Shown here: in pieces, positions 283-60,000 of the stretch
Layout: each line of letters begins with the position of its first letter
Numbering within the stretch: position 1 is the first letter of the stretch
Source: Byssochlamys sp. IMV 00236
Taxonomy: Eukaryota; Ascomycota; Eurotiomycetes; Eurotiales; Thermoascaceae
DNA: 64,000 nt
Reading direction: 5' to 3'
NCBI GenBank assembly: GCA_001931875.2
Contig: MSJH02000810.1
Span: 631,535-695,534 of the forward strand
Position numbers and translations under genes: made by a program
The notes under the pieces: model-generated
Seen by the model: the letters and a program-made list of their open reading frames with translations, nothing else
Told to the model about the DNA's origin: nothing
Database searches by the model: none

Positions 283-2759
283 TCAGCCATGCATCCAGCC
301 CCCGTCCTGGAACAAGTCTGACATCTGAGGCTCCTGCCAGTAAAGCTGACGCCATTCGTCTTCCATTTCTGGAAGGCTTTCAAACGCCATAGGCACGGAT
401 TGGGCGGTGTCAACGAACGGGAAGAGTTGTCGCCAGTCTGAATACCCCCTTGTTTCTTCTAAGTGTTCCACCGGCTCCGGAGGCGGAATACCCTCCGACC
501 CCTCGAAAGAGGTATCGGCAAACCGGGGCTGCGTAACGATGAAAGGGTCATAATTCTGGTTCTGTAGATTCACTGCAGACGGAGAAGATTGCTGGAGATG
601 TGAGTGGGATCTTTGTAGTTGCGGTGCTGATTGTGGGGGCACTTGAGAGCGTTGGACCATTGGTGTTGCGGTGTTGGATGTAGAATCCGAATTCCCACTG
701 TGCCCGCGAGAACCATTGAACTGTCCGGGCATTTCAGTCTTGGCCAGTCGCAAGTCCTGTTGCAGTCGTTTCGAGCCCTCAAACAGTCGGAAAACCATTC
801 CTGCATGTGCCCAATACTCTGCCAATTCACGGAGAGAATACAGGGTCGAATCAAATCGTCTCAGAGCATTTATGGCCAACACAGGGTTCGAGAACCGCAG
901 CTCAACCCTGACTTGTATCATAGCTGTGAGAAGGGTGTAAACCGATGAGCTCCAGAGATACTTCAGGCGATCCTTTTGACGAAGTTCCTCAAAAATTGAA
1001 GCAATGACTCCAGCACCAGTACTGCAGATCTCAGCATCGTGGGGACCGTAGTCATCTGAGTAGGCAGATGCCCTCGGATGCGGCCTATGTAAAAGGATGA
1101 GAAAGTTATTGTACGTCAGATGAAGCACGGCCGACCATGGGTCCAAATCAGAAGCTCGTAACCGTAGAGTATCTGGTAGTTGAAGAGACCAGTCTGCTAG
1201 AGCGGCGTCAGCCTGCGGAAGAGCGGCTTTTCGACGCTCGGGGCTTATTTTCAAGCCAAATCTCTCTTTGAGAATGTACGATATCATCGTACACAGCTCT
1301 GTGAAGTGGATAACAAAGTCAACCTGCACCTGGGCGCCGCAGCCTTCAAAGTCTGACGGGGTCAGAGGGAGAACATCGGAGTCGTCTAGATTTCTGAATC
1401 CTCGTTAGTATTTGACGAGAGAGTCATAATAGGATCCCAGACAACTCACATGGCCTGTGGTCGCCCGTATGACAATGAGACCATAACGTCGAATTGCACC
1501 AGAATCCACCATACTCTCCTCCACATTCTCCGGTCTCCAGCAGTAAATCTGCTCGAAACAGGGTTACGATGCATTCCTATACCCGTAGCAAGCCTTGCTG
1601 CCACCCCGACCCAATAGTAAGCATTAGCGGAAACATCATCATCGGTAGAATCAGAGTGCCATGTCAGGAGCAAAGCCACTTGAACCAGAATATCTCTGTT
1701 CCGCTCGACTCTCGCGTCAAATAACCACTTGCACCGTCGGAAGAAGGTCTCTTTCAATGCGTCTCTCTCTGGCATAGGGCGAGATACATGAGCTCCCACA
1801 AGCAAGATGGCTTGGAGGACCAATATTGGTGGGGGATCCGATGGATCGTGATTCCGATACTGTGTCATAAATACATCCTCGTCGACAATGGGATATCCAG
1901 GGTTCACATGAGCGAAATATGCTTGTACCAATTCGTCTGCCAGCGCCTTCTCAGGTAATGAAACGGCATCCTTGAGAAGCTCATCGTGGCCTGTTCTCAG
2001 ATGGCGCTTAGGGATATCGTTTCCCGCAAAGTGATACACGTCACCATCTTTCCCTCGTTGTTGACGAATGAGGAACGATATATTGGAAACATCATGTCCG
2101 ACATATATCGCACGTACACCTCTCTGGATCTCTCTCTGATCCAACTCATCCTCGTCAATCAGCTTCACTAAGCGCTTCTCCAGCCCCCGATGGTCTTCAT
2201 GGTCGGTTGACGACTCAGATGATGGTTGCTGGTCGTAAGAGCCCGGCCTTTGGTTCATGCTGGACCCATTTTGTGGTCCCTGAGCATTACCTGTATAAGC
2301 TGACTGAGGAGGGATATTACTCCGCGGACTGGAAGCTACTGTTGATGCCGCCCGTATCGGAGACACTGGCGAAAGCAGTTTTGAGGAAGTGTCAGGCACA
2401 GACGGCGGCCGGCAACGTATCGGGACTGGATCAAGAATCGACCGGACAACTGGCCGCTTTTTCTTTTCGTGTATGCGACAGTCTGTCTTACCAGAAGACC
2501 GGCAATTGGAGCATGGTAGCCCAACGATACGGGCGTCGCAGCGGACTTTTCTGAGATGGCAATGAACGCAAGCAGCGGACCCTGGTAAACACAAATACAG
2601 TCAGAACTCATGACCACATCAACGCAATCTCTCCTTCGATATAAAGTGGCCAACAGCACAAATATCATCCAAGGATGATAGATGAATCATACCCGACTTC
2701 CGCTTCGTCACTCCACCGCCGCCTGCGGGGATCTGAGTGTTGCTCGCTGCGGAAGACAT
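283..2759 (-). CDS. amdR: AmdR-like Zn2Cys6 transcription activator
   Basis: Three exons: 2759-2693, 2581-1450 and 1393-283, giving 769 residues. Exon 1 was found by hand. It starts at an ATG and ends KRKS before a GTATGA...ACCAG intron of 111 bp; intron 2 is 56 bp (GTGAGT...TACTAAC...CAG). Residues about 27-53 form a binuclear zinc cluster of spacing CX2CX6CX8CX2CX7C, followed by a basic run (HEKKKRP). The middle third matches the fungal specific transcription factor domain (SYGRPQAINL, RPHPRASAYSDDYGPHDAEIC). The C-terminus is polar and Gln/Pro-rich. From family knowledge, A. nidulans AmdR (about 765 residues) is a nuclear activator induced by omega-amino acids; it drives acetamidase, lactam and GABA catabolic genes. 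The resemblance runs from the N-terminus through the middle domain, so I prefer AmdR to the related CTF1-type factors. The next gene upstream is hapC, whose product acts at CCAAT boxes, including that of amdS. Confidence 0.87.
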
Positions 2760-15086: not shown

Positions 15087-16955
15087 ATGGCGTCGCTGGT
15101 CCGTCCGTTGCAATCTGCCTTATCGCGCTCGACCTCGAATGGTCCAGAGGAGGGCAAAAATGAGGACGTTGTTCAGAGCACGTCAATCCAGGCACAGGCA
15201 GATGGAGTGGGTGAATTGTCCTTCGATGAGTATACCCAAGGTGGTCTCGGGCGGCATCTGGGCATTGTCTCAACTGCATTCCTGATGTTGGTTAATTCCC
15301 TTGATAACCAACAACGGTACATACTAACCAAATCTATGTTGCAATCAGTGTCGGTCGCATCATCGGAACTGGTATCTTCTCGACACCTTCCTCGATCGTG
15401 GAGGGCGTAGGGAGTGTCGGTGCATCTTTGATGCTTTGGGTCCTAGGATTGTTCCTCTCTGCGGCTGGCCTATGCGTTTGGCTTGAGTTTGGATGCATGA
15501 TTCCTCGCAGTGGAGGAGAGAAGGTCTATCTGGAAGCTGTATATCGTCGGCCAAAGCAGTTAATCACAGTTGTATTCGCCGTGCAGGCGATCGCATTAGG
15601 ATTTACAGGTATGTGCTATCTTTCCTGGCATTGCCTTCGACGATCAGAACGAGAATGGTGGAATACGACTAACGCAAAATAATAGCGTCCGGTTGTATCA
15701 TTTTCGCCTCCAATATCGTGGTTGCTGCGGATCGAGAAGCGAGCGAATGGGAAGAGCGTGGAATCGCAATTGTTGTCATTGTCTTCGTGACTTTGCTTCA
15801 TACATTCTTGCCAAAGTTAGGCGTTCGTGGGATGAACTTCATTACTACGGTTAAGATTATCACCCTTCTTTTTATCGTCGTTACAGGATGGGTAGTCCTC
15901 AGTGGCCGAGTCCATCGAGTGCAAGACCCTCATGCGAGTTTCCGCAATGCCTTTGCAGGCTCAGTGCATTCAGGCAATGTCTACGCCACGGCTCTATTTA
16001 AAGTATTAAATTCCTATGCCGGGTGAGTGCTTTCTCGTCATATTGAGCCTCTCTATGTTCTTACCACTGACATTCATCCTAGATGGTCCAATGCAGCCTA
16101 CGTCCTGAATGAAGTAAAGAACCCCGTTCATACTTTGAAAATTGCAGGCCCGTTGGGTCTGCTTATCTGTGGTGTTCTATATCTGCTCGCCAATGTAGCC
16201 TATTTCTCTGCCGCGACACCTCAGGAGATCGCAAACAGTGGATCAACCGTCGCCGCCTACTTCATGCTCAAAGTGTTTGGGAAAGCTGCACAACGCGCAT
16301 TGAGGTATGTAAGACACTTACCTCAGCGCCTACCTTTTTCCGGACTAACAGCTGCAAAAGCGTCCTTGTCGCGATATCTGCCCTAGGAAACGTCATGTCA
16401 ATCACATTCGCACAAGCCCGTGTGAATCAGGAACTGGCCAAAGAGGGAGTCATCCCATTCCCCCGCTTCTGGGCATCGAACTGGCCATTTGGCTCACCCT
16501 CTGCCGGTCTCTTACTGCACTTCATCCCATCGTTCATCGTCATCGTGGCCATTCCATTCGGTGATGCATATGACTTTATCCTCGATCTGGAAGGGTATCC
16601 TTCAAGTGTGATTAACTTCCTCGTTGTCCTCGGTCTGTTCTATCTACGATGGGCGGAACCCAAAATACCACGCCCCTTTAAGGTGTGGTGGCCAATCGCA
16701 GCGTTCTTCATGGCTGCACAAGCATTTCAGCTTATTGCTCCTTTCCTCCGTCCGCCGGGTGGGAAAGGAGATACTTCTCTACCGTATTCGTTATACGCCG
16801 TGGTTGGGATCGGCGTGTTGGTCGCGGCGGTTGTTTACTGGGCTGTTTGGTATAGGCTGTTGCCATGGATTGGGAAGTATAAACTTGTTCCCCAGCACGA
16901 GAAACTGAACGATGGGACAACAGTCGTGGTGTATAAACGGGTGCCTAGAACATAG
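15087..16955 (+). CDS. Amino-acid permease of the LAT type (methionine permease-like)
   Basis: Five exons: 15087-15286, 15349-15608, 15686-16022, 16083-16304 and 16361-16955 (537 residues). The APC-superfamily signature around the first helix is VGRIIGTGIFSTPSSI. It is followed by about twelve hydrophobic segments, FGCMIPRSGGEKVYLE after helix 2, YAGWSNAAYVLNEVKNP in the middle, and RVNQELAKEGVIPFPRFWAS, typical of fungal L-type/high-affinity methionine permeases (Mup1 group). It should sit in the plasma membrane and import neutral or sulphur amino acids; the substrate is inferred from family only. Exon 1 ends at an atypical GTTGGT donor, the only one that joins the reading frame into the VGRIIG motif. 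Confidence 0.9.
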
Positions 16956-17185: not shown

Positions 17186-19275
17186 TTATCCAACTCTCTC
17201 AACCTGCACTGTCTGCAACCCATCTTTACTCTCAGCTTTCGTCTCCAAGAATTCTTTCGCTACGGGATTGACATGCGCAACGATGGCGTCTTTTCCATCG
17301 AATAGAAGCGCAATCTGTTCCAGACTTGGACCTTTGGTCTTTTTTTATTTCATCAGTATGAATTACAGCATGTTGAAGCAGAATCGAGCATGAGAGAGAG
17401 AAAAAAATAAATATATCTAGGTAAGGAAAACGGAATATACATACCTCTATAAAAAACAAGTACACAATAATAAACTGTATGATAATCCACCCGACATAGA
17501 AAAAGTAGTACTTCCACGCGAAAGCGTCGATGCCGAGAGGGTTAACGTAGGTGTTGAATGCACCCGTTGCGCCGGTGACTAGCCAGAAAAGTGCGAGGCC
17601 TTTGGCGCGGATGGCGAAGGGGAGGATTTCAACAACTGTATTATTGCAAGTTTCAGTGTTTATTCTAATATAGAAAACATGTGGGAGAAAGCTTTTGTTT
17701 TCGGAGGAGTCACTCACCATATAACATCATAGCACCCGTCCAACCGAGATTATGTGCCGCATTGTATAAATAAATGAAAGCAACCGTTGCGTATGAGGCC
17801 GATTTACTACCTGTTTCAACATATACTCCCGTACAGGCCGTGATGAGCGAAAAGACTAGCCACATGAGAGCCATTGACCATAGCATAAGCGGTCGTCGAC
17901 CGACTCGACCGGGGAGAAATGCGAACGCTACGGAACTGGCGAAGCTGAACATGGCGCTTGTAGCGGTGATCAGGGTAGTTTGGATCTCCTTGGTTATGCC
18001 GGCGGATTTGAGCATGCTGCTAAGGTAGTAGCTAATTAGGCCATTTCCGGACCATTGTTTGCAGACGCCTGTATAGAATAGATTTCGCCAGTTAGCGGTA
18101 ACCACTACAGAGAATGGGATATGGCTACGTACCGCACCAGACTAAGATGAATGATCGCCGTAGATTCCCTCTGGTGCTGATAAGGGTTTTCCAGGAGGTC
18201 TTCCTTGCGGCAATTTCCAGTTCGATAGTATCACGTATCTCTCTGAATTCGCACCGGACGACGGGGTCGTCACTGTTTCCGTTCCCGTGGTACTCGGTGA
18301 GGATATCAAGAGCTCTTTCTTCATGGCCTTTACTGATAAGCCAACGGGGCGACCTATAGGAGATAGTGGACGCTTTTTAGGGAGATTCACAATGAGGGGT
18401 CTGGTTGACCTACTCTGGCAAAACAATGGATCCAATTGCTTGCAGGATGGATGGTAAAGCTTGGAAGATAGTCGGTAGGCGCCACGCCCTGACTGCACGT
18501 CAGTAAGCCGAGAAGATACTCCCATCTCGAAGATCTTAACGGATAGATTCCATACCATGAACTTGCCATATGGAAAGACCCAAATGTAACCCACGCAGAC
18601 AAAATCGATCCAGCACTATAAGTCGTATTGGACATGGACGTGGCCGTAGCCCGATGTGCTGGATATGCTAGTTCTCCCATCCACATCGGTCCAATTGCTC
18701 CTGTAATGACACCCCCGATTCCCAGCAGCAATCTTCCTGCAATGAACATTCCAGCTTCCGAGGCCCCTGTAGCGAGACCAGTACCGGCAAGGCATAAAAT
18801 AGATCCTAGCATAAGACACCACCGTCGACCGAATCGATCTGATACGCTGGAAATAAATACGACCCCGATAATGTTTCCTAGCCTGAAAGTAAACATTGGT
18901 GCTGATAGGCTTGAAAGGGGGATTGGTACTAGACACTCACCTATCCAATATGCAGCGCTCATGGCACCGAGAATGTTACCGTGTGGATGATGAAACTCTA
19001 TCGCATACTGTTAACAAGTTCTTCCAATAGAGCTCAATGAAAACAGAATGGGATATACCTCGCTGCCAAACCGTCAACTGTTGCACATTATTGATCAACG
19101 ACGCATCATAGCCCTGCGTAAACTCGCTGAACATGAGAAAGAATAACATGGAATTAAGTTTCCGAAGGCCCCTATCTTCCCACCATGGCACGTTTTTGTT
19201 ATTGCTTAAGTTCGTATGTTCCAATGCCTGACGGTCAACATGTTGCTGGGTTCTGAATCTCATTTTGGAAGACAT
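17186..19275 (-). CDS. MFS sugar transporter
   Basis: Eight exons: 19275-19059, 18997-18941, 18877-18556, 18488-18414, 18353-18133, 18068-17718, 17635-17445 and 17338-17186 (528 residues). Sugar-porter signatures are present: GYDASLINNVQQL in helix 1, SDRFGRR after helix 2, ESPRWL before the central loop, PGRVGRR in the second half, and a cytoplasmic tail. The central loop motif EYHGNGN resembles that of fungal lactose/cellodextrin-type porters, so a disaccharide or other oligosaccharide substrate is plausible; this is an inference. In introns 1, 2 and 3 the frame is kept only by an AG that lies 4-12 bases downstream of another possible acceptor AG. Its neighbours are a BNR beta-propeller gene in tandem upstream and a GH79 gene beyond it, suggesting joint use of one glycan. 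Confidence 0.9.
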
Positions 19276-20068
19276 CTATACAGCCGTTCTGGAGGACGTG
19301 TGACTGTCGCTACGCCTGATTATATGCGATTCATAGGTTCAATTCGTGTCGTATTAAGGGGACGGACTCAAATATGGGCAGATGTTATCTGCATATGTAC
19401 CTAGTAAAAGAGCTCCGGAAGTGACAATGGAAATTACTATGATCGAGTCATCTACGAGAATCTCTGCATGGTTGTTGAGCTATAGATCTGACCATTCTAC
19501 CACCATCCATTCTTTGTTTGATTAGCCAGGCCTATCCATGGCCGGTCACAATGCGACTTTTAGGTACGGAACCCCGCATTCTGAATTGAAGCTAATGCTT
19601 TCCCCGGACTTTCAACTTAATCCCGGGGTTATTACCAGGCGGTATGCTGCGGTGCCACATACCAATGGGGATAAAATATAAGTATTAGCATGGGCGCTAA
19701 TAGGTCTCGTTGATATTGTTTCCACCAACCAGGTTGGAATTAAGGGGGATTGCTCGGTTCAATGGACCCCGAGCTCATAAGGGCTGCGTCAATGAGTCCG
19801 TGATTGTTAGATCTCGATGAACAACCACAAAGCGTATTCACCGTAGATACTGTTTCTAAATAATGGCTTCGTTTTGTTTAAGGCATCAAGATGATGGGCG
19901 ATAAATATGAAGAAGGGAGCGGGACCAAAATGATATGAATCGTTTATAAAAATGATTCTTATGGACATGCTGAGAATCACTGGCGCTTTTCTTTTTTGGG
20001 TAAGGAAGCATTTGAATCATATAATTACATATTTTATCCATGATGGAATGGCGTCGTAGCATGTTACC
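19276..20068. other. Intergenic region between BNR gene and transporter
   Basis: A 793 bp stretch contains the transporter promoter and the 3' end of the BNR gene. Apart from the CreA-like sites listed separately I see no gene or repeat. Confidence 0.5.
19572..19628. promoter_or_regulatory. Three CreA-like sites upstream of the sugar transporter
   Basis: Three matches to the CreA consensus SYGGRG lie 300-350 bp before the transporter start: 19572-19577 (as CCCCGC), 19602-19607 (as CCCCGG) and 19623-19628 (CCGGGG). The last two are in opposite orientation, 21 bp apart. Clustered sites are what active CreA targets usually show, but the consensus is short and binding is inferred. Confidence 0.35.
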
Positions 20069-21495
20069 CTATGCGAGTACTAGTTTGCTCAAATCGAAAT
20101 TCAACACTACAATTTCCCTCTTTCCTCCTTGTGAGCGAGTCGTGAAGATGGATAATATTCCATGCTCACTCAGTGCTTCTTCATCGACTAGTGGCTCTCC
20201 TGTATACCCTTCCTCCCTCCAGACGACATCGTATTCATCGTACCACTTCTGTGTCTTACCACGGGCGGCTCGGATGATGACCAGATTGGAATCTGTGTTG
20301 GAGGGAAGGACGAAAAGTATGCTATCGGACTGAGTGTGTTGGACCACTTTCCCGCGTGGGCCAGATTCGGTCGGCTTGAGAAAAGGTAGTGCTGAGAACT
20401 TCCATCCATGAGTAACATCGAGATGGTAATGTATCCAGCGCTCTTCTCCACTAGTGTTCTCCCGATTCAAAACGTGGATATCCCCATCACGACACACCAT
20501 CTGGCCCTCTTGGTTCATGATACCGCTATTCTTGGGAATCTCTTGCGCCAAAAGCCGGCGGTCACGGGAGTCCATCCCAGTATCTGGTTTCGAGGAGACA
20601 GTGGCGACCTCTTCTTTTGTCGAATGGCTCTTCCACGTTCGACCGTAATCAGAGCTGTAAGCATAATAGAGCCCTTCGTTATTCTCAGGACCGTTTGGGC
20701 CAGTTTGCGCCTTGTGAGCGGTAGATTCTGGGTTGGTCGCCCCCTCGTAGTCGATAAAGTGCCGATTTGTCCATGTTACATGTAGTGTACGTGTCGGACG
20801 ATGCCATGAAATACCATTGGGATAAGGGTTGCATTGTCTCCCGATCAGGTAATTCCCAATCAACTTGAACTGTCCTGCAGCATCGTACAGATAGAGGATT
20901 TCTGATCCTGCTCCGGCTCTGTAGAGAATTACTCGTTAGTCTCCTTTTCCCAGCATCCGATAAACGAAGTGAATGTCTAGACTTACTTGCCAATACGACA
21001 TTCGAAAAACATCTTATCATCCGTTGATAGAAAACGGGGATATGTAACGTCAACTAGAGGTTCGTTTGTCAAACTGCCCGGAAGAGAATGGCGGATAGGC
21101 CCAAAACTCTCTGTACTCCATGCTGTTTCGTTCAAATCAGTAGCCAAGCCTGGACGAGATACCCGATACTTCAGCACATCGCAATGATGGTCGAATGCAA
21201 TATGTATGGTTCCATCGCCTCGACAGATTCCAATCGAAATCGTGTTGTGGCCGTCATCTGTGGTTTGTTCATAGTCTGTGAAGGTCACTTGACGCCAGTT
21301 CGAAGGCGCCTCTTGGATATTACGCCGCGCAAGGGTAACAAATCTGGCATTTGAAGATCCATCTCTGGAGTAGAAAGCGACATATTGGAGTCCACCGAAG
21401 CTTGTGATTGCGGATTGTTGATACACACAAGCGTTTAGGCGGTGCACGGTGGGAGGGTCCTCTCCCAGGACGCTGATCTCAGGTGCCAACAACAT
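20069..21495 (-). CDS. BNR-repeat beta-propeller protein, GH145/PL42-like
   Basis: Two exons: 21495-20987 and 20918-20069 (452 residues). It belongs to the fungal BNR_4 family (often mislabelled neuraminidase). Visible blocks are RLNACVYQQSA near the N-terminus, SDDGHN-type TDDGHNTISIGI, HIAFDHHCDVLKYRVS, EPLVDVTYPRF, NPYPNGISWH, an Asp-box SSDYGRTW and NSGIMNQEGQ...HVLNRENTSG. Relatives with this seven-bladed fold act on L-rhamnose-alpha-1,4-glucuronate ends of arabinogalactan glycans as hydrolases (GH145) or lyases (PL42). That role is inferred here and supported by the adjacent GH79 gene. The start ATG at 21495 leaves no normal signal peptide, although the codons just 5' of it, with no ATG of their own, read as a hydrophobic stretch. 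A different first exon or a cytosolic enzyme are both possible. Confidence 0.7.
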
Positions 21496-22315
21496 AATGC
21501 CACAGGCCAGAGATACAGAGACAGATGTCCGAAGAATAATTCAGAGCTCAATCAATTAATGATTCTGTACATCTTTGACCTCAAAAGGACAAGTTTGTCT
21601 GCTCGTATTGATGTAACGCCCAGTTGTTAATGCAATGTCTAGACCGTGGACGGGAATCGGAGCACGTTCTGAGCAAAGAGATTATCTCATTACGAGCACA
21701 TGAAAAGAGCTACACTATCTTGTGTCCTGGCATGGAGCTTGTCAGAATCTCATTGAGCCGCCGGAGTAGTACGGATGCGGGGAAGTAGTGTGATTCGGGG
21801 AAATGCTGTTGTGGAGAGTTGTATTAAATAATGGAGGCAAACCAATCTACAGTACAATATTCAATCATACGACGAAGCTGGCAATACTCTCCGACCCAGT
21901 GAGGCAAAAGTGAACGACTACTGTGAACCATGTCATTCTCAAGCTTAGATTTCTCCATCAATCGGCTCTCGCTTTTGATGAGGGGCTTTTATTGGAGTTG
22001 GATCGCCTGGAGGACTTCTTGATATGGGCTCTAGCAGGGATGTCGGCTAAACAACGATAGTATAGGCATTGAACCCTATGAGATTAGCCCTGTCAAGTAC
22101 AAATTCAAGAACAATAAAATTTGAATGCTTTCTGTGTCAAACAAATGGTTCCGTTTTCTACTCAAGATAAGTCTGAAAGGAAAACGGCGCCGCTTTCATT
22201 CTTCGGTGGCCAGGCAAGTATATGGCTTTTACTACAACTTGAGTTCACAACGGGTGATAAAGCGCAGCCAGAGGATCCCTCATGAAAAGACACCTCCAAC
22301 CAATATCGTATCGAG
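21496..22315. promoter_or_regulatory. Shared promoter of the BNR and GH79 genes
   Basis: An 820 bp stretch lies between two divergent glycan-degradation genes. CreA-consensus matches occur at 21761-21766 (CCGGAG) and 21777-21782 (GCGGGG). The arrangement suits co-regulation by an inducer and carbon repression; this is inferred from layout. Confidence 0.4.
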
Positions 22316-24282
22316 ATGCATTCGAATCAGAGTATAGGGTTCCTTGTAGCAGCCCTACTTTTTTCCGCTAGAACAATCTATAGCCTCACTTTTGCTGTCC
22401 CTTCCTCGCCCCCATCCAATGCAAGTGGAACACTCGACTCCGCTCCTGTTGGTGTATCGTAAGTGTCATGGCAATTCTAATATCAAAGCTGACCTCACTA
22501 ATATTCCTTATTAGATTCGAGTTCTTCGCATTTTCAGCATATATGCAAGATGTAGCCGCAACAAATGTCTGTCTGAGCAACCTCAAAAAAGCTATGGGTA
22601 CTGCAGTTCCAATCAGGATCGGGGGTACCACGCAGTGAGTGAAGACCTGTAGTGATATCAACGATCATAGTCTAACTGAAGCCTTGCTCTGCAGAGATCG
22701 AGCAACATATGATCCCAGCCTAAGCACCGCAGTCAATTACTCCGTAGCATCATCTACCGACGCACCGGATTCTCTTACCTTTGGACCATCATTTATGCAA
22801 ATTGCTAGCTCCTATGATGGAAGTGTAACTTTAGGTGAGTATTGGACTCGTTGTTCAAATGACAGTCAACATAACTGACTGATTCTCATTACTATGATTA
22901 CAGGCCTGGATAGACGTCTCAATAGCATCTCAAACACAATTGCTGCAGCCAAGGTAGCAGTATCAGTGATCCCAAATTTATACGCCTTGGAACTAGGCAA
23001 TGAGCCAAACTGTAAGCATAATACTTCTATTATATGACAGCATAAAAATTGATTTCTAATACCCATACCAGTCTTCGTCTCCTCCGACCCCATCGCCAAC
23101 GGAAGTTCTTGGACAGCTGCAGCAGATGCATCTTCTCAAGTATCGTGGCAGGAGTCAGTTGCTACGGCTCTTGACAAAGAGTCCATCATCCAAGCAGGCG
23201 TCTTCTTCGGCACGGGATCATTCAGCGTCGAGGAGTTAGTTGCCAAGGAAGGCGCTTCTGCAAGTTACGTACGATCTTTCAGTGAACATTATTATCCGCA
23301 GTCAGGGTCTACGGCGAATTTGACAGATCTGATGAGCCACAGTTCCATAGTTAGTGGTGTTTCGGCATTTGAGGATGATATCAACGCAGCTTCGTCGCTG
23401 GATAAGCCCTTTGTGTTTGGGGAGACCAATTCTGGTATGTAGCACTCTGTACCTAATCCATCGGAGTAAAGCCATCTCTGTGACGATTCTATAGATGCAC
23501 TGACACTCGAATAAAGCAACTCAAGGCGGTGGTGGAATCAGTCCAACCTATGGCGCCGCCCTCTGGATCTTGGACTATGTTATGCAAGCCGTGATTCTGG
23601 GAGCAAAGGTGAGGCCCCTATACAATCTTAAATGATGATCATCTTCTTCTTCTTCTTCTTCATCGGGACCTGAATATACATTAGGTACCTAGGTAACTAA
23701 TCCACCGACTCAAAACAGCAACTATTCTTTCACCAAGGGACAATTGGAAACTGTACGTTCCCATCTCCACTATTCATTCATTCATCACCAGCATCCTCAC
23801 CAACATTATATTCTATCCACATAGGCCAATACTGCTGGTGGGGCAACTACACCATGGGCGCCCCCTACTACGGCGCCTACATGGCCGCTCTGTCTTTAAA
23901 CGGCGCCTCGCGCATCGCTCCCCTCGACTCCGGCACCACGCCCTACGCCGCATATGCCATCTACCAGAACGACACCGTCTCTCGAATCCTCCTCTATAAT
24001 TCCGACTACTATAGCTCCGGAACAAGAAGTGGTGTTAATTTCACACTGGCTGGTCTATCGACCTCATCTTCTTCTAGTACAGTGACGGCAGTGAGGTTGA
24101 CGGGGGATAAGGCCACGGCGAGGATAGATCAGGGTGGGATTGTCACTGTTGCGGGTCAGACGTTTGAGAACGGGACGTGTACGATCCAGGGTCATAAGGT
24201 CGTGGAGGATGTGGATGTGGGAGAAAATGGCGAGACGGTGGTTAGTGTGGGTGCGGCGGAGGCGGTGTTGGTTTATCTGTAG
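22316..24282 (+). CDS. Secreted GH79 beta-glucuronidase
   Basis: Eight exons: 22316-22458, 22515-22634, 22695-22834, 22904-23011, 23072-23434, 23517-23608, 23719-23752 and 23825-24282 (485 residues). A signal peptide covers about residues 1-30 (FLVAALLFSA core). The TIM barrel carries the family landmarks PIRIGGTTQDRATYD, YALELGNEPN (here ALELGNEPNFF) with the proposed acid/base Glu, and VFGETNSATQGGG with the proposed nucleophile Glu. A C-terminal beta-sandwich (Glyco_hydro_79C) follows NCQYCWWGNYTMGAPYYGAY. Fungal GH79 enzymes remove terminal GlcA or 4-O-methyl-GlcA from the beta-1,6-galactan side chains of arabinogalactan proteins. Several N-X-S/T sequons fit a secreted protein. Both catalytic motifs are intact, so the enzyme is probably active. 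Intron 6 carries a (CTT)n microsatellite at 23643-23662. Confidence 0.92.
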
Positions 24283-25024: not shown

Positions 25025-26658
25025 ATGAAGCGCTCAACGAGAAGCAAGCTTGCGCCTCTGCTGATGCTGGCATGTGCGACGGCAGGCGTGCTGGCTGGTT
25101 CCAAGACGTTCAGTATTAATGATGATATTCTGGCTTTTCCGCAGGTGAGTCTACCTTTTACATTGAGAGTTCTTGGTGATGATGTTGACTCGATTCTTCT
25201 TGTTAGTTTCGAGTGGTCTACCCCGATGAATTTGTCCTCGAGTCCGACGCACAAGCACTGTTAGAAGCGCAAGATTCAGCATTTACGTCCTCAGACGAGC
25301 AAGGAGACAAGGACAAACAGGTGCGATTGGCAAAGGCACAAAAAGGAGAGAACAGTCATCCGTCGCCCGGTTCCCAGGATGGGTTTGCCGGCACGTATGA
25401 GGAGATGATTCTGCAGGGTCAACCATACTTGTGTCAGATCCCCCGGGTCGAAACAGAAACGTCTACAGCTACCGATGATGCCCGGAATAAGGAAGAAGAG
25501 GAGAAAGAGCTGGCCCGCGCCACGGACCGCGGATTGGAACTATTGCGCGAGTTGGAGGGAAAGTGCATGTACTACGTGTCCGGATGGTGGTCATACTCGT
25601 TCTGCTACAAGAACCAAGTCAAGCAGTTCCATGCTCTTCCGTCTGGAATGGGTGTGCCGAGCTACCCGCCTGTCGAAGACCCGACCACGCATTCTTTTGT
25701 CCTAGGCAAATTTGGACATGGGGATGACGAGGAAGAAGAAGCGACTGAAGACAGGAAGATGAGCACGGATGTCGCGGAACTACAAACCAAAGGGGAGTCA
25801 AGATATCTCGTGCAGCGGCTGGGCGGAGGTACGAAGTGCGATTTGACGGGCAAGGAGCGCAAGATCGAGATCCAGTTCCACTGCCATCCGCAGTCGACAG
25901 ACCGCATTGGGTGGATTAAAGAGCTCACAACGTGCTCGTACTTGATGATCATATACACTCCCCGGCTCTGCCATGATGTCGCGTTCCTGCCACCGCAACA
26001 TGACGACGTCCACCTGATTGAATGCCGGGAAATCATTACCCCGGACGAAATCGGTGACTGGGAAGCGGCGCGGGCTCATCGACTGGCGCAGAAGCTTGTT
26101 GAGGCTGCCAGCGCTGAATTCCCCCTGGTGGGAGGGATCGAGGTAGGCGCGCAGAAATTGGTAGGCATGGAAGGAAAGGAGATCCAAAAGGGACGTGTGG
26201 CGACTGCTGGGGAGGAGAGAGTGGAAGTCGTGGCTAAGAAGGAGGGCGGGGAGGTGCAACTGCTGTCCAAGGAGGAGCTGGAGAAATTCGACCTCGACCC
26301 GGAGAAGATCGAGCTGTTGAAGAAGCGACTTGAGGAGCTGGCAAAGGGCAAGGATTGGAAGCTGGAGGTGATTGAAGTGAACGGGGGTCGGGAAATCCGT
26401 GGGATCCTAGACCCCGATGACGACGAAGACGAATACGGATCCGCAGAGGGCACAGAGAAATCGACCGATTCGACAAAGCAGTCCGACGAGGATAAGAAGG
26501 GAGACGCTAGAAAGGAGCAGGAGACCGCTCAGGACGAGCATCAGACGAAGCCGCTCAAGGAGAAAAAGACGCGGCCACCGCACCAACCTCCTCCTCCAGA
26601 GTCTACCAACGATGATTCCAAAGAAGGCAGCGAGGAGACCTTCAAGGAAGAATTGTAA
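25025..26658 (+). CDS. YOS9: ER lectin Yos9 / OS-9 homologue
   Basis: Two exons: 25025-25144 and 25207-26658 (523 residues). Signal peptide at about 1-24 (LAPLLMLACATAGVLAG). A mannose-6-phosphate-receptor-homology (MRH) domain spans about residues 115-295. It starts QPYLCQIP, continues CMYYVSGWWSYSFCYKNQVKQF, and closes IEIQFHCHP...RIGWIKELTTCSYLMIIYTPRLC, with the ligand-binding Q, R, E and Y positions of the family recognisable. The rest is acidic, Lys/Glu-rich and ends KEEL, close to the KDEL/HDEL retrieval signal. Yos9 is a luminal ERAD component that reads trimmed N-glycans on misfolded proteins and presents them to the Hrd1/Hrd3 ligase. It shares the glycoprotein pathway with Ost2 elsewhere in the window, but the genes are not adjacent. 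Confidence 0.93.
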
Positions 26659-54003: not shown

Positions 54004-55266
54004 CTTCAAGGGGGTCATCTAGTTAACCTATGACGGTCACCCGACTCAGATGCCTGGTAGTCGAGGGTTCATTCCAATTCGGGTGTAGATAATGCTGTAT
54101 TCGCAGGTAGTGAGAATATTCTTGTCATATCCTAACTAATACTGTACATTCAATGCCGCCTGACAAGAAACTTGTACCGAGTTAAGGCTGAATTAAGATG
54201 GGTTAAGTTAGCTGGATTAGCTCTTCCGAGCCGTGTTTCACGATCTGAAGTTACTTTGCTGCAATGTGCCTGTTATTTCACTTCCTCTTGGAGCTTCCAT
54301 AATTGCATACACCGTCGGCGTAGCAGCAAGCACGGTATTCGGCTAGAGATGCAATCAAACCAAAGCCAGGGTTTTCCTTGCATCAGTCCTGCTTTCCCAC
54401 TGGCCTTGTGTTTTTTGTTCCTTTACAGGGCCTTTCCAGATATCTTCGGCAGCGATGCTTCCGACCGTTGAGCTTGGCAGTTTCAAATCCGCAACGCCGT
54501 CGAATGCACAGACCGCTCAGAGATGGCCTCCAGGAGGTTATCGTGCGATGTCCCCTCAATGCTCGTCAACTGTTAGTTATTTATGCTTGGACAAAAGATG
54601 GAGAAGGTCAGTCAGTCAGTTGAAGCAATGCAAAGATGCCCATTTGACGTCCGAGCCCAACTCACGGATCTCTACTTAGATGCGTGCGCCATCTCGTGCT
54701 GCTTGTAGACCAGCGCACGTTTACTATTCGCAGCTGGTGAAATAAGCATATCGGGACACGTCGATAGCGATCTCCAGAATGTGAGGGCATGAGCGCTCAC
54801 TGGTTCTGTTGTCGAGAAGCAATTTCCACACCATCATGTCCAGACTTTCGCCTGACGGCTAATTTATACCCGCTCGAGCCGCGGACAGTCTACTCAGGCA
54901 TGATCCTTGGTCGAGATGTCAGCGTACCTAGCAAGCCCCTGCCGTCTCGCCCGTGAAGCGTCTCGTCTTCACGGGCGATACCTAAAGCGCACGAGGGGGT
55001 TTCGTGTTGGAGCTCCACACGAGTGCGATGTTTTCTTCCATTTAACTATTCGTAGTTTGCTCTCGGCCATAGTATCCGGTATGGAGTACTTCTTACCCTC
55101 GATATGAGACGGGCCAGTTCTCTACTTTCACTTACTCTTATGTTGCAATCAGGGCCTTCTGGAAGGCTGTCCGTTCCTTTTAAGCGGTAATTATCATTCT
55201 TTTCAACTTATATCAACACGTTCCTAAGTATATTCTCGCTACTGGTATTGCGATAAACGACAGAAC
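54004..55266. other. 1.26 kb spacer with a perfect hairpin
   Basis: No gene is recognised. A perfect 12-bp inverted repeat (54947-54958 with 54967-54978, 8-nt loop) is listed separately. The last few hundred bases should be the promoter of the gene at 55267. Confidence 0.45.
54947..54978. repeat. Perfect 12-bp stem, 8-nt loop inverted repeat
   Basis: TCGCCCGTGAAG is followed after CGTCTCGT by CTTCACGGGCGA. The stem is GC-rich and fully complementary. It lies about 290 bp upstream of the start of the disordered-protein gene, so it may be in its promoter or leader. Function is unknown. Confidence 0.8.
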
Positions 55267-57001: not shown

Positions 57002-60000
57002 CTAATACAGTCGGATATAATCGTCCACCTGGCACCCACCGTCCTTGGAGCAGATAGCGTAGAGGTCATATCTGTTCTTGTCGGATAATATCTCCTTTAC
57101 CCGCGCGATACGAGATTCACTCAGGGGATCCTTCTTTGGAATGAGGTTCGCAGCTATTCTGGATATACGATACCTTCTCTTTCTGCGGAAGAACTGTACG
57201 ACTGATTCGAAACTTGGCAGTCGCATGGCATTCACGAATTGCTGCAGTGAAACGAAAACAGGCTTAAGCTCACCATGGCATTTGCCAGAACTTTTTGACG
57301 TGGTGGAGGTTTCGTATAGAACAAAGTAGGCTTCCGGGTTAGCCCCAAACATGAGGAAATGCTCTAGGATCAGGCCGTACTCGCCCAACGGTGCCTCCAA
57401 TTCATTCTGGAAGGAACCTTGCCATATCCACTCCTGTTTCCCTTCAATGACTGACGCGCCAAAGTGGAGGAGAAACGAAAGCCAAACAGTTGGGGTTTCC
57501 TGGGCGGGTTTTCGGACATGCTTCATATCCTCTGTTTCCACCCGCTCATACGATGATGCGCCCTCCTCTAAGAGGAAACGTACCAACCGAGAATTGCCTG
57601 TAAGGGCCGCCGACAAAAGGAGATTCAAGCCGTCTCTGGTCTTCAACGTGCCAGCGTCCATTGATACCCTCTGAAAAACATACTGATTTTGCCGGAACAC
57701 TGCTGCGAAGTGAAGATAAGAGAACTCAGTACCAAACTTAGATAGGGATCCTGTAATGGGTATTTGCAATCCCCAATTGGTAAATCTGTCATCTGACGCT
57801 GTGTGATCAGGATATGTGGGCGCAAGCTGTCTGTAGCTATGCAATACCGAACCGAACTCTTCCGCGATCTTGATAGGCGGTTCTTTTCCAATAGCCTGCA
57901 GTCCAGCAAACCACTCAAAAGACCACTGCAGATTCTGGCGACGCAGTTCTGAGTTCCCTTGATTATAGTGCTGAGGTATCGCAAACTTGGACAGTGCTAG
58001 CAGCAAACGGCAATAGATATCTGTATAATCAATCCCCTGGAGCCGGCTTCTGATGTCACTCAGATTTGGGGTAGATTCTAGATATTCTCTCACACTTCGA
58101 TGAACAAACCCAACTTCGTGCTGGAAAGATGCATCTTCGTACAAATTCATCAACGTCCGGGCATTATGTATGGGTTTCATTTCCAACAATCCTTTCGTTA
58201 AGCAGTCTAATTGGAGTCGTACATTTCTCTCTCTGTCCAGCACTTCTTGATGAGTATACCCTCTCACCGGGGCATTGAACGGAAAGTTTGGATCTTCAGT
58301 GTCATCAAGCCAGGAGTACACAAGGGCGTAGTGCCGCTGAAGCGGAAAGGTGCTGGCAAGAAGAAGCATTTTGTCGGAACGTCTGCGATCGCGAGGTTTA
58401 ATTTTGGCAAGCAGTTTCTCAAACAACTCATTGAGGGTCTCTGGGATTTCATTGAGCGTTTCCCAAAGGACTGACGGAGGATCAAAATTTGCAATGTCAT
58501 CAAGAAGTGATTGAACCACAAGAACGACCCACAAGAACACACCTTCGGCTTTCTTGACTATTTCTTCCACGAAGTCCTGGTATATCTTGCTTACCCGGTG
58601 GAACATTGCACTATTCTCGAATGCAGACCGGCAAAATCGAGACATATCGCCTTGAGTCAGTTCGTGAAGACGGACTCGAAGACTCGGATCGTCGGAGAAA
58701 GTTTCCATAAATTGATTATGTGGGCGACTACTGACGCATATCTTGATATCCTGTGACTGCGCCCATTTTTGGAGACTTTTGGCAAGTTCCCAGTGTTCGA
58801 AACTTTTACCTTCGTATTCATCGAGACCATCAATGAAAAAGCAGATACGATGGTTAGGAAAGGATTTCCTGTTCACCAACCTTTCGAAGGCAGCTTTCAC
58901 ATCGTCAAGACAGAACGGGGCATTTCCAGACCAAGATCTGTCCAGATCAAATAGGTCCCATTGATCTGGAAAAATCTGCTGGATGAGCTCAGGACATTTC
59001 TTGAGAGTCTGGAAGAGAATGGCTCTGTAGAGTCCCTCCATAGACATCTGTATTCTGGATCCAGAATTCCAAAAAAGGAAGCGGGCAAATATCAATTTCT
59101 TTTCCCCTGCCCAGCTCTCTAGCTCCCCCTGAACGCAAGGATTGTTGCAGAGAAATTTCATGAGAGTTGATTTTCCAGAGCCAATCTTACCACTCACGTG
59201 GTAGATTGAATTTCCTGATCTCAACCATGTCAAGAATGAGGTGCGTGTATGCCTTCGCATTTCTCTCTCGAGGTCACTCAAATCTTGTTCATTGCTCTCC
59301 TCTTTCACAATCCACCAGTAAGTCCCATCTTCGGCGGTTTTTATGGCACGCTCACGCAAATACATATCCCCGAAATCTAACCGGACTAAAATGTCATTCT
59401 CTCGCGGTATGGACTGGGCGATCATCTGCAGCTTTGGCAGGAGAAGGGTGATGTGGGTGGACGGCTCAACAGTGCCCCTGGCGGTTTCCTGGATCGTCTT
59501 TGAGCCACTCTTCTCTTCTTTGTCCCGGGTTATTTTTATCGCTTCTCGCAATTCATCTATAAGATCTGAGATCTCAAGTGTCCTATCACTTTGTGCACGC
59601 TGGCACTCTTTTAGAATACTATCCAACCGCGAGTTGGCCGAAGACTGCTGTTCACTACCCACTTATTTAGCCACAAGAATGTGCGAATACAAGTACACAT
59701 TCGTTTCAACTCACCTGAAGATTATTCCCAGCAACGTAAGGGTCTGCAGTCGGCAACTATCCAAACTCCTTTCAATCGATGCTATCTCTTTCTCTTTCCT
59801 GATGCTCTTGAAACTGACTTTCATACTCTTCCATTTCGAGTCTTTGTCTACCACTGTCAATTCCTTCAGGATACTTTGAAGCGTATCGGATTGTTGACGG
59901 CAGATTTGGCAAATTTCACGTAGCGATCTTTCATGTTTTGTCTTCCCTCGAAAATGAGTGTCCAAGGTGTTAGTCGCTCTGCGAATATTATCGAGCAATT

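What the first reader, a model, noticed from the sequence alone, without database searches (positions are those of the whole stretch)
17186..24282. Candidate glycan-catabolism cluster: sugar transporter, BNR beta-propeller and GH79 glucuronidase
Three consecutive genes fit one pathway: a possible GH145/PL42-like enzyme for Rha-alpha-1,4-GlcA ends, a secreted GH79 glucuronidase that would remove the exposed glucuronate, and an oligosaccharide-type MFS transporter. The natural substrate would be arabinogalactan protein or gum-type glycans. Both divergent enzyme genes share one 820 bp promoter, and CreA-like sites occur in the two promoter regions. I know of no standard description of this trio as a fungal locus, though I cannot check the literature.
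Basis: partly seen in the sequence, partly recalled or inferred. Interest (0 to 1): 0.8.

Follow-up and report, generated by a model that had tools for sequence, protein, structure and literature searches.

The report
Fungal plant-gum disaccharide uptake gene cluster
Three neighbouring genes of a mould probably cut an acidic two-sugar cap off plant gums outside the cell, carry that pair of sugars inside whole, and split it there, unlike the known Fusarium enzymes, which work outside.

Summary
The three genes are real and intact at the stated coordinates, in a Paecilomyces genome (97-98% protein identity to P. variotii). The BNR protein is a PL42-type lyase: it keeps 12 of 13 FoRham1 active-site residues (S170 is Ala) and lacks the GH145 histidine. 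The GH79 is nearest, among solved structures, to FoBGlcA, which frees the disaccharide Rha-GlcA from gum arabic. The MFS is a sugar porter. Best model: secreted GH79 frees Rha-GlcA, the MFS imports it, the cytosolic PL42 splits it. Support: lyase and near-MFS hits share contig lengths in 11 pairs (0 with 72 other MFS rows), lyase and GH79 in 8, with consecutive locus tags in five; in this transporter clade lysine (43 of 45) replaces the first sugar-site glutamine; one RhaR-type palindrome lies in the MFS promoter. GH79 specificity and transport are inferred, not shown.

The parts
17186..19275 (-). MFS sugar porter gene, 8 exons (19275-19059, 18997-18941, 18877-18556, 18488-18414, 18353-18133, 18068-17718, 17635-17445, 17338-17186), 528 aa; proposed importer of Rha-GlcA
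   Evidence: Pfam Sugar_tr 283.2 bits and NCBIfam TIGR00879 251.7 bits (cut-off 237.8) for the 98% identical P0241; no second near-clade copy found in the genome, next paralog 33%
18058..18060 (-). codon of Lys301 (K297 of P0241), aligned with the first Gln of the QQ-x-SG/TG motif of GLUT3/STP10
   Evidence: K in 43 of 45 near-clade rows, S in 65 of 71 distant rows
19754..19772 (.). TCGG-N11-CCGA palindrome of the RhaR/PDR-1 type in the MFS promoter, about 480 bp upstream of the MFS start
   Evidence: the only exact site in the two promoters; 18 of 1000 shuffles have one; motif described in PMC5469009 (passages)
20069..21495 (-). PL42-like L-rhamnose-alpha-1,4-D-glucuronate lyase gene without signal peptide, 2 exons (21495-20987, 20918-20069), 452 aa
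20702..20761 (-). branch-specific extra loop (about residues 223-242) directly after the Arg220 equivalent, near the reducing-end side of subsite +1
   Evidence: Arg-to-blade segment 34 residues here, 31-34 in 113 of 114 relatives (20 in one), 14 in FoRham1
21496..22315 (.). 820 bp divergent promoter between the lyase and GH79 genes; 4 CreA-like sites, not clearly above chance
22316..24282 (+). secreted GH79 gene, 8 exons (22316-22458, 22515-22634, 22695-22834, 22904-23011, 23072-23434, 23517-23608, 23719-23752, 23825-24282), 485 aa; Glu168 and Glu288 as acid/base and nucleophile (roles recalled for GH79)
   Evidence: hydrophobic N-terminus, peak 2.90

Best explanation
The trio is a module that cuts outside, imports the piece and splits it inside, for the alpha-L-Rha-(1->4)-D-GlcA caps of gum-type arabinogalactans. 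[quoted passage not shown] Step 2 (inferred from linkage, co-distribution and pocket residues): the sugar porter carries this acidic disaccharide across the plasma membrane, a lysine in TM7 pairing with the carboxylate. Step 3 (catalytic residues and absence of a signal peptide shown by sequence and model; reaction inferred): the PL42-like lyase splits it in the cytosol by beta-elimination into L-rhamnose and delta-4,5-unsaturated glucuronate. Its extra loop and the Ser170-to-Ala change, both near the reducing-end side of the glucuronate, fit a site reshaped for the free disaccharide rather than polymer ends. Rhamnose would enter the fungal rhamnose pathway and, through RhaR, may induce the locus; the fate of the unsaturated uronate is open.
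Against: The GH79 clade linked to the lyase is not FoBGlcA's own clade; the A. niger and N. [quoted passage not shown] FoRham1 itself is extracellular. Listed contig lengths of lyase and MFS differ in A. wentii, C. fioriniae PJ7 and C. sublineola; lengths also differ for P. variotii, where the genes are adjacent in the window, so a difference may only mean different assemblies. No KduI isomerase was found in the genome for the unsaturated product, nor a PF14587 galactanase. Two of 120 lyase rows (P0025, P0040) have long N-terminal extensions, P0040 signal-like. Transport and expression are untested. Sharing a contig is not adjacency.
Confidence: 0.66

Rival explanations
1. One reading: the BNR enzyme acts outside on polymer ends, taking off rhamnose; the GH79 then removes the exposed glucuronate; the MFS imports products.
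For: Families and linkage are right; FoRham1 is extracellular and acts on gum arabic at 42% of its activity on Rha-GlcA (PMC8377490).
Against: No signal peptide, and no room for one by structural alignment. A lyase leaves unsaturated glucuronate, not the glucuronate a GH79 takes. The hydrolase alternative (GH145) lacks its catalytic His (Phe33 here) and fails the GH145 equivalog cut-off.
Confidence: 0.08
2. Same module, but the GH79 releases plain or 4-O-methyl glucuronate, the MFS is a glucuronate importer, and the lyase handles a minor Rha-GlcA fraction.
For: A. niger and N. crassa GH79 enzymes have that specificity (PMC4052742, passages); an A. niger row, P0206, lies in the linked clade, although it is not known here whether it is the characterised enzyme; a lysine suits any uronate.
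Against: The lyase is the widespread partner of the MFS (11 contig pairs, 10 of them in rows without a contig-linked GH79), and it acts on a disaccharide; a monosaccharide importer would not need it.
Confidence: 0.17
3. The MFS and the lyase serve another rhamnosyl-uronide (for example from ulvan-like or saponin-type glycosides), and the GH79 is a later addition in Eurotiales.
For: The lyase-MFS pair spans five classes while contig-linked GH79 was seen only in seven Aspergillus rows and one Penicillium row; FoRham1 shows trace activity on ulvan.
Against: The Rha and GlcA contacts of FoRham1 are kept apart from S170 and a frequent Tyr26-to-Phe change in relatives, and FoRham1 is specific for Rha-alpha-1,4-GlcA.
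Confidence: 0.09

Closest known systems
FoRham1, PL42 L-rhamnose-alpha-1,4-D-glucuronate lyase of Fusarium oxysporum 12S (PDB 7ESK/7ESN; PMC8377490, PMC10951650)
   Different: 35% identity (140 of 401 aligned); no signal peptide; Ser170 is Ala in 111 of 114 relatives; 17-20 extra residues after Arg220 in 113 of 114
[quoted passage not shown]
   Same: Best solved relative, 599 bits over nearly full length; NEP and ETN motifs with the catalytic Glu pair kept
   Different: Lies in a different GH79 clade from the lyase-linked enzymes; its own paper (10.1111/febs.15795) is not held and nothing of it was seen
A. niger rhaB-rhtA tandem (PMC5161314, passages)
   Same: Rhamnose-releasing enzyme and transporter genes side by side, induced through RhaR
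   [quoted passage not shown] here a sugar porter and an intracellular lyase
Use of disaccharides through CDT-type permeases and cytosolic glycosidases in N. crassa (recalled; CDT-1/CDT-2 named as lactose carriers in PMC10774165)
   Same: Works the same way: disaccharide import followed by intracellular cleavage
   Different: Neutral disaccharide and hydrolase there; acidic disaccharide and lyase here

Membership tests
PL42 | Seven-bladed BNR_4 beta-propeller close to FoRham1 | tested here: met
PL42 | His85-His105-Asp83 triad, Tyr150, Arg166, Tyr202, Arg220 on the anterior side | tested here: met
   all present in the window's protein; in 114 relatives invariant, apart from gaps in two rows (Tyr202) and one row (Arg220)
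PL42 | beta-elimination of Rha-alpha-1,4-GlcA | not testable with these tools
   needs an assay at 235 nm
GH145 (BT3686 type) | catalytic His48 on the posterior side | tested here: not met
   His at chain index 48 of 5MUK aligns with Phe33 (His48 named in PMC8377490); NCBIfam NF052497 85.3 bits, cut-off 700 (on P0001)
GH79 | GH79 C-terminal domain and catalytic Glu pair (NEP, ETN) | tested here: met
[quoted passage not shown]
   closest solved relative but in a different clade; activity untested
Sugar porter family (TIGR00879) | score over the curated cut-off | tested here: met
   251.7 bits, cut-off 237.8, on P0241
Fungal catabolic gene cluster | conserved linkage across species | tested here: met
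   11 lyase-MFS and 8 lyase-GH79 contig-length matches; five pairs with consecutive tags and one two apart. All three together seen on one contig length only in A. steynii besides the window
Fungal catabolic gene cluster | co-induction by the substrate | not testable with these tools
   no expression data

The most novel reading that the evidence does not exclude
An uptake route for an acidic disaccharide spread over at least five classes of Ascomycota (Eurotiomycetes for Aspergillus and Paecilomyces recalled): a dedicated sugar-porter clade with a uronate-binding lysine imports Rha-GlcA, and a cytosolic branch of PL42, now annotated as 'dockerin type 1', GH145 or hypothetical, cleaves it by beta-elimination. 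It would be the first intracellular PL42 and the first fungal importer of an aldobiouronic acid that I know of.
Probability: 0.55. Interest if true: 0.75.

Novelty: new variant of a known kind. Interest (0 to 1): 0.62.

Why it matters
Side chains of gum arabic are often capped by Rha-GlcA (PMC8377490). If these fungi take the cap up whole and cleave it inside, the released rhamnose, a likely inducer, is kept from competitors, and the extracellular FoRham1 scheme of Fusarium is only one of two strategies. It would give a function to a large set of proteins (437 hits at E <= 1e-10, of which 120 were listed; the named ones are fungal, many labelled 'dockerin type 1' or hypothetical). It offers a transporter candidate with one testable residue and raises the question of how fungi metabolise unsaturated glucuronate.

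Tried and rejected
GH145 membership: rejected. Extracellular lyase: rejected on start position and structural alignment; hydropathy alone does not settle it, since the window's protein scores 1.78 because of its first strand. An upstream exon with a signal peptide was looked for by eye in the sequence (15 sense codons lie between an in-frame TGA and the Met) and none was found; P. variotii starts at the same Met and nearly all listed relatives at a corresponding place. Being an orthologue of the rhamnose carrier RhtA: rejected, other family. CreA regulation: weak. CGG-N11-CCG alone: 14 in the window, 9.8 expected, 12 of 100 shuffles as high. GaaR sites: none in the two promoters. Bacterial members: one scan of the GTDB species genomes with two peptide patterns matched 33 stretches, none confirmed as a relative; not exhaustive. 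KduI and PF14587 in the genome: none found. Foldseek and VIA rows below the PL42, GH145, PL24 and PL25 groups are sialidases, lectins and other propellers. Literature on the trio, an intracellular PL42 or a Rha-GlcA importer: the rows listed showed nothing of the kind; several of these searches held far more papers than were listed (for example 1,353,341), and the library holds open-licence papers only. The FEBS J. paper on FoBGlcA is not held. PMC13169297 was seen in listings only; PMC9113603 (passages) was not needed.
Full report
WHAT IS THERE. The three genes are complete. I built them from the sequence: the MFS gene on the minus strand (19275-17186, 8 exons, 528 aa), the BNR gene on the minus strand (21495-20069, 2 exons, 452 aa) and the GH79 gene on the plus strand (22316-24282, 8 exons, 485 aa). 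All 15 introns are GT-AG. Public P. variotii proteins match them at 98%, 97% and 97% identity over 99-100% of their length, so the source is a Paecilomyces close to P. variotii (inferred), not an Aspergillus. The assembly has 47.4 Mb in 840 contigs. The trio is flanked by an amino-acid permease (ORF 16113-16955) and a PRKCSH-domain gene, OS-9-like by my reading (ORF 25207-26658), so the cluster appears to be just these three.

THE BNR PROTEIN IS A PL42-TYPE LYASE. Among solved structures the nearest is FoRham1 at 209 bits; the GH145-type proteins score 34-40 bits. Aligned with FoRham1 it keeps 12 of the 13 residues that PMC8377490 (seen: abstract, Results parts 1-3 of 4, passages) and PMC10951650 (abstract, outline and passages) describe in the active site; only Ser170 is Ala. 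I aligned 114 of the 120 listed relatives, those of 400-560 aa; six were dropped by length. Asp83, His85, His105, Tyr150, Arg166, Asn275 and Gln276 are present in 114 of 114; Arg220, Arg331 and Glu381 in 113 (one gap each); Tyr202 in 112 (two gaps); Tyr26 is Phe in 90 and Tyr in 24; Ser170 is Ala in 111, Ser in one, gap in two. FoRham1 S170A keeps 89% of its activity on gum arabic and 30% on Rha-GlcA, so this change does not argue against catalysis. The GH145 catalytic His48 aligns with Phe33, and the GH145 equivalog model gives 85.3 bits where 700 are required (P0001).

A LOOP AT THE REDUCING END. Between the Arg220 equivalent and the next blade this branch has 34 residues here and 31-34 in 113 of 114 relatives (20 in one), where FoRham1 has 14. 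In FoRham1, Ser170 and the Pro223 main chain touch O1 of the glucuronate. The two changes that mark this branch therefore sit near the reducing-end side of subsite +1. That they make the enzyme specific for the free disaccharide is my inference. The loop is the least certain part of the model (block means 82, 76, 70 for residues 221-250).

THE GH79. It matches FoBGlcA (7DFQ) at 599 bits, the next solved relative, from Acidobacterium, at 48. FoBGlcA releases Rha-GlcA from gum arabic (PMC8377490) and a Rha/GlcA disaccharide from a Ceropegia polymer (PMC12095969, passages). In a tree of 113 GH79 rows (111 of the 120 listed, by length, plus the window's protein and FoBGlcA without its last 52 aligned residues), the window's GH79 lies in a 17-row clade (SH-aLRT 97) that holds all 8 GH79 rows whose contig length is shared with a lyase row; FoBGlcA lies in another clade of 74 (support 85). 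Drawing 8 of 8 in such a clade by chance has probability about 3e-8 (computed for 16 of 111); the species are related, so this overstates the case. The dedicated clade supports the cluster but weakens the transfer of FoBGlcA's exact specificity. A. niger and N. crassa GH79 enzymes release GlcA and 4-O-Me-GlcA (PMC4052742, passages).

THE TRANSPORTER. Its 98% identical relative P0241 passes the sugar-porter model TIGR00879. Near relatives (about 50-98% identity) separate from a distant set at about 38-45%. I compared 49 near with 71 distant rows: at 27 positions one residue reaches at least 90% in the near set and at most 10% in the distant set. One is K297 of P0241 (K301 here): Lys in 43 of 45 near rows, Ser in 65 of 71 distant rows. 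In the HMMER alignments to GLUT3 and STP10 it falls on the first Gln of QQ-x-SG/TG; that this Gln binds the sugar is recalled. The model puts it at the end of helix 281-299 (mean pLDDT 83.2). A positive charge there suits a uronate (inference). It is not RhtA, whose family is the fucose:H+ symporters (PMC10774165, passages).

CONSERVED LINKAGE. No fungal genome other than the window's was at hand, so I used the 'longest contig' lengths and the locus tags of the protein hits. Exact lengths are shared by lyase and near MFS rows in 11 pairs, by lyase and GH79 rows in 8, by GH79 and near MFS rows in 2, and by lyase or GH79 rows with the 72 other MFS rows in 0 (near set 48 rows; one of the 72, P0294, is a near-clade fragment that I had put there). 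A. steynii has all three on one length, and one length of 8,505 bases from an unnamed source carries a lyase and an MFS. Consecutive tags: MBLNU459_g3397/g3398, M1834_002757/002756, HYALB_00002908/00002909, BP5553_07682/07683 (lyase/MFS), ASPACDRAFT_1891397/1891396 (lyase/GH79; such numbers need not follow position); two apart: N7454_008392/008394 (lyase/GH79). The lyase-MFS pairs lie in Dothideomycetes, Leotiomycetes, Sordariomycetes, Xylobotryomycetes and Eurotiomycetes (recalled). By hand count of the tables, 15 of 20 named genera or taxa with a near MFS also appear in the lyase list, against 3 of 39 with a distant MFS. Against it: lyase and MFS lengths differ in A. wentii, C. fioriniae PJ7 and C. 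sublineola; they differ for P. variotii too, where the window shows adjacency, so a difference need not mean separation. Several other species could not be judged because the rows come from different assemblies. The lists show only the best 120 of 437, 406 and 735 hits. The distant set lies mostly in other species, so it is an imperfect control; two same-taxon cases (Xylogone, Rhexocercosporidium) also do not share lengths.

REGULATION. CreA-like sites: 4 and 5, reached in 37 and 17 of 300 shuffles. A perfect TCGG-N11-CCGA palindrome, the PDR-1/RhaR type (PMC5469009, passages), lies at 19754-19772 in the MFS promoter; 18 of 1000 shuffles of the two promoters have one, and no other spacer from 0 to 20 gives a site there. 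With one mismatch the motif is not enriched in the window (22 found, 22.9 expected), nor is CGG-N11-CCG. This is suggestive only.

MECHANISM AND OPEN STEPS. Shown by computation: families, residues, absence of a signal peptide, conserved linkage. Inferred: Rha-GlcA as product of the GH79, its import, its cleavage inside. Open: the fate of unsaturated glucuronate; no KduI was found in the genome. The genome search found one BNR_4 protein and one near-clade MFS, so an extracellular PL42 step by another gene of this family is unlikely here.

VERDICT. The finding is real and more interesting than described, but its pathway must be turned round: GH79 first and outside, lyase last and inside, with the transporter between. 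The chemistry is known from Fusarium; the intracellular lyase branch and the transporter are the new part.

CORRECTIONS ON RE-CHECK. GH145 scores are 34-40 bits; the contig control holds one near-clade fragment; C. sublineola and the P. variotii lengths were added as cases that do not match; tag counts are five consecutive and one two apart; the five classes were looked up.

Noticed in passing
57005-59662 (-): Long ORF with NPHP3_N (NACHT-like) and DUF7791 domains, an NLR/STAND-type protein.
   Followed up: no
1449-2600 (-): Zn2Cys6 transcription factor with Fungal_trans domain, about 15 kb from the trio; no link shown.
   Followed up: no
G000 C812:564341-565529: Distant GH79-like relative (31-34% identity in two pieces) elsewhere in the genome.
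   Followed up: no
P0061 and P0284 (Venustampulla and Monilinia rows): Public models carry an Mnd1 domain (PF03962) together with the lyase in one species and with the MFS in another, probably annotation fusions over the same neighbourhood, an indirect hint of synteny.
   Followed up: partly
Colletotrichum fioriniae rows P0057 and P0101: Two kinds of lyase row with different N-termini carry this species name, suggesting an old duplication in the PL42 branch.
   Followed up: no
54446-54464: Second exact TCGG-N11-CCGA palindrome of the window, not linked to the trio.
   Followed up: no
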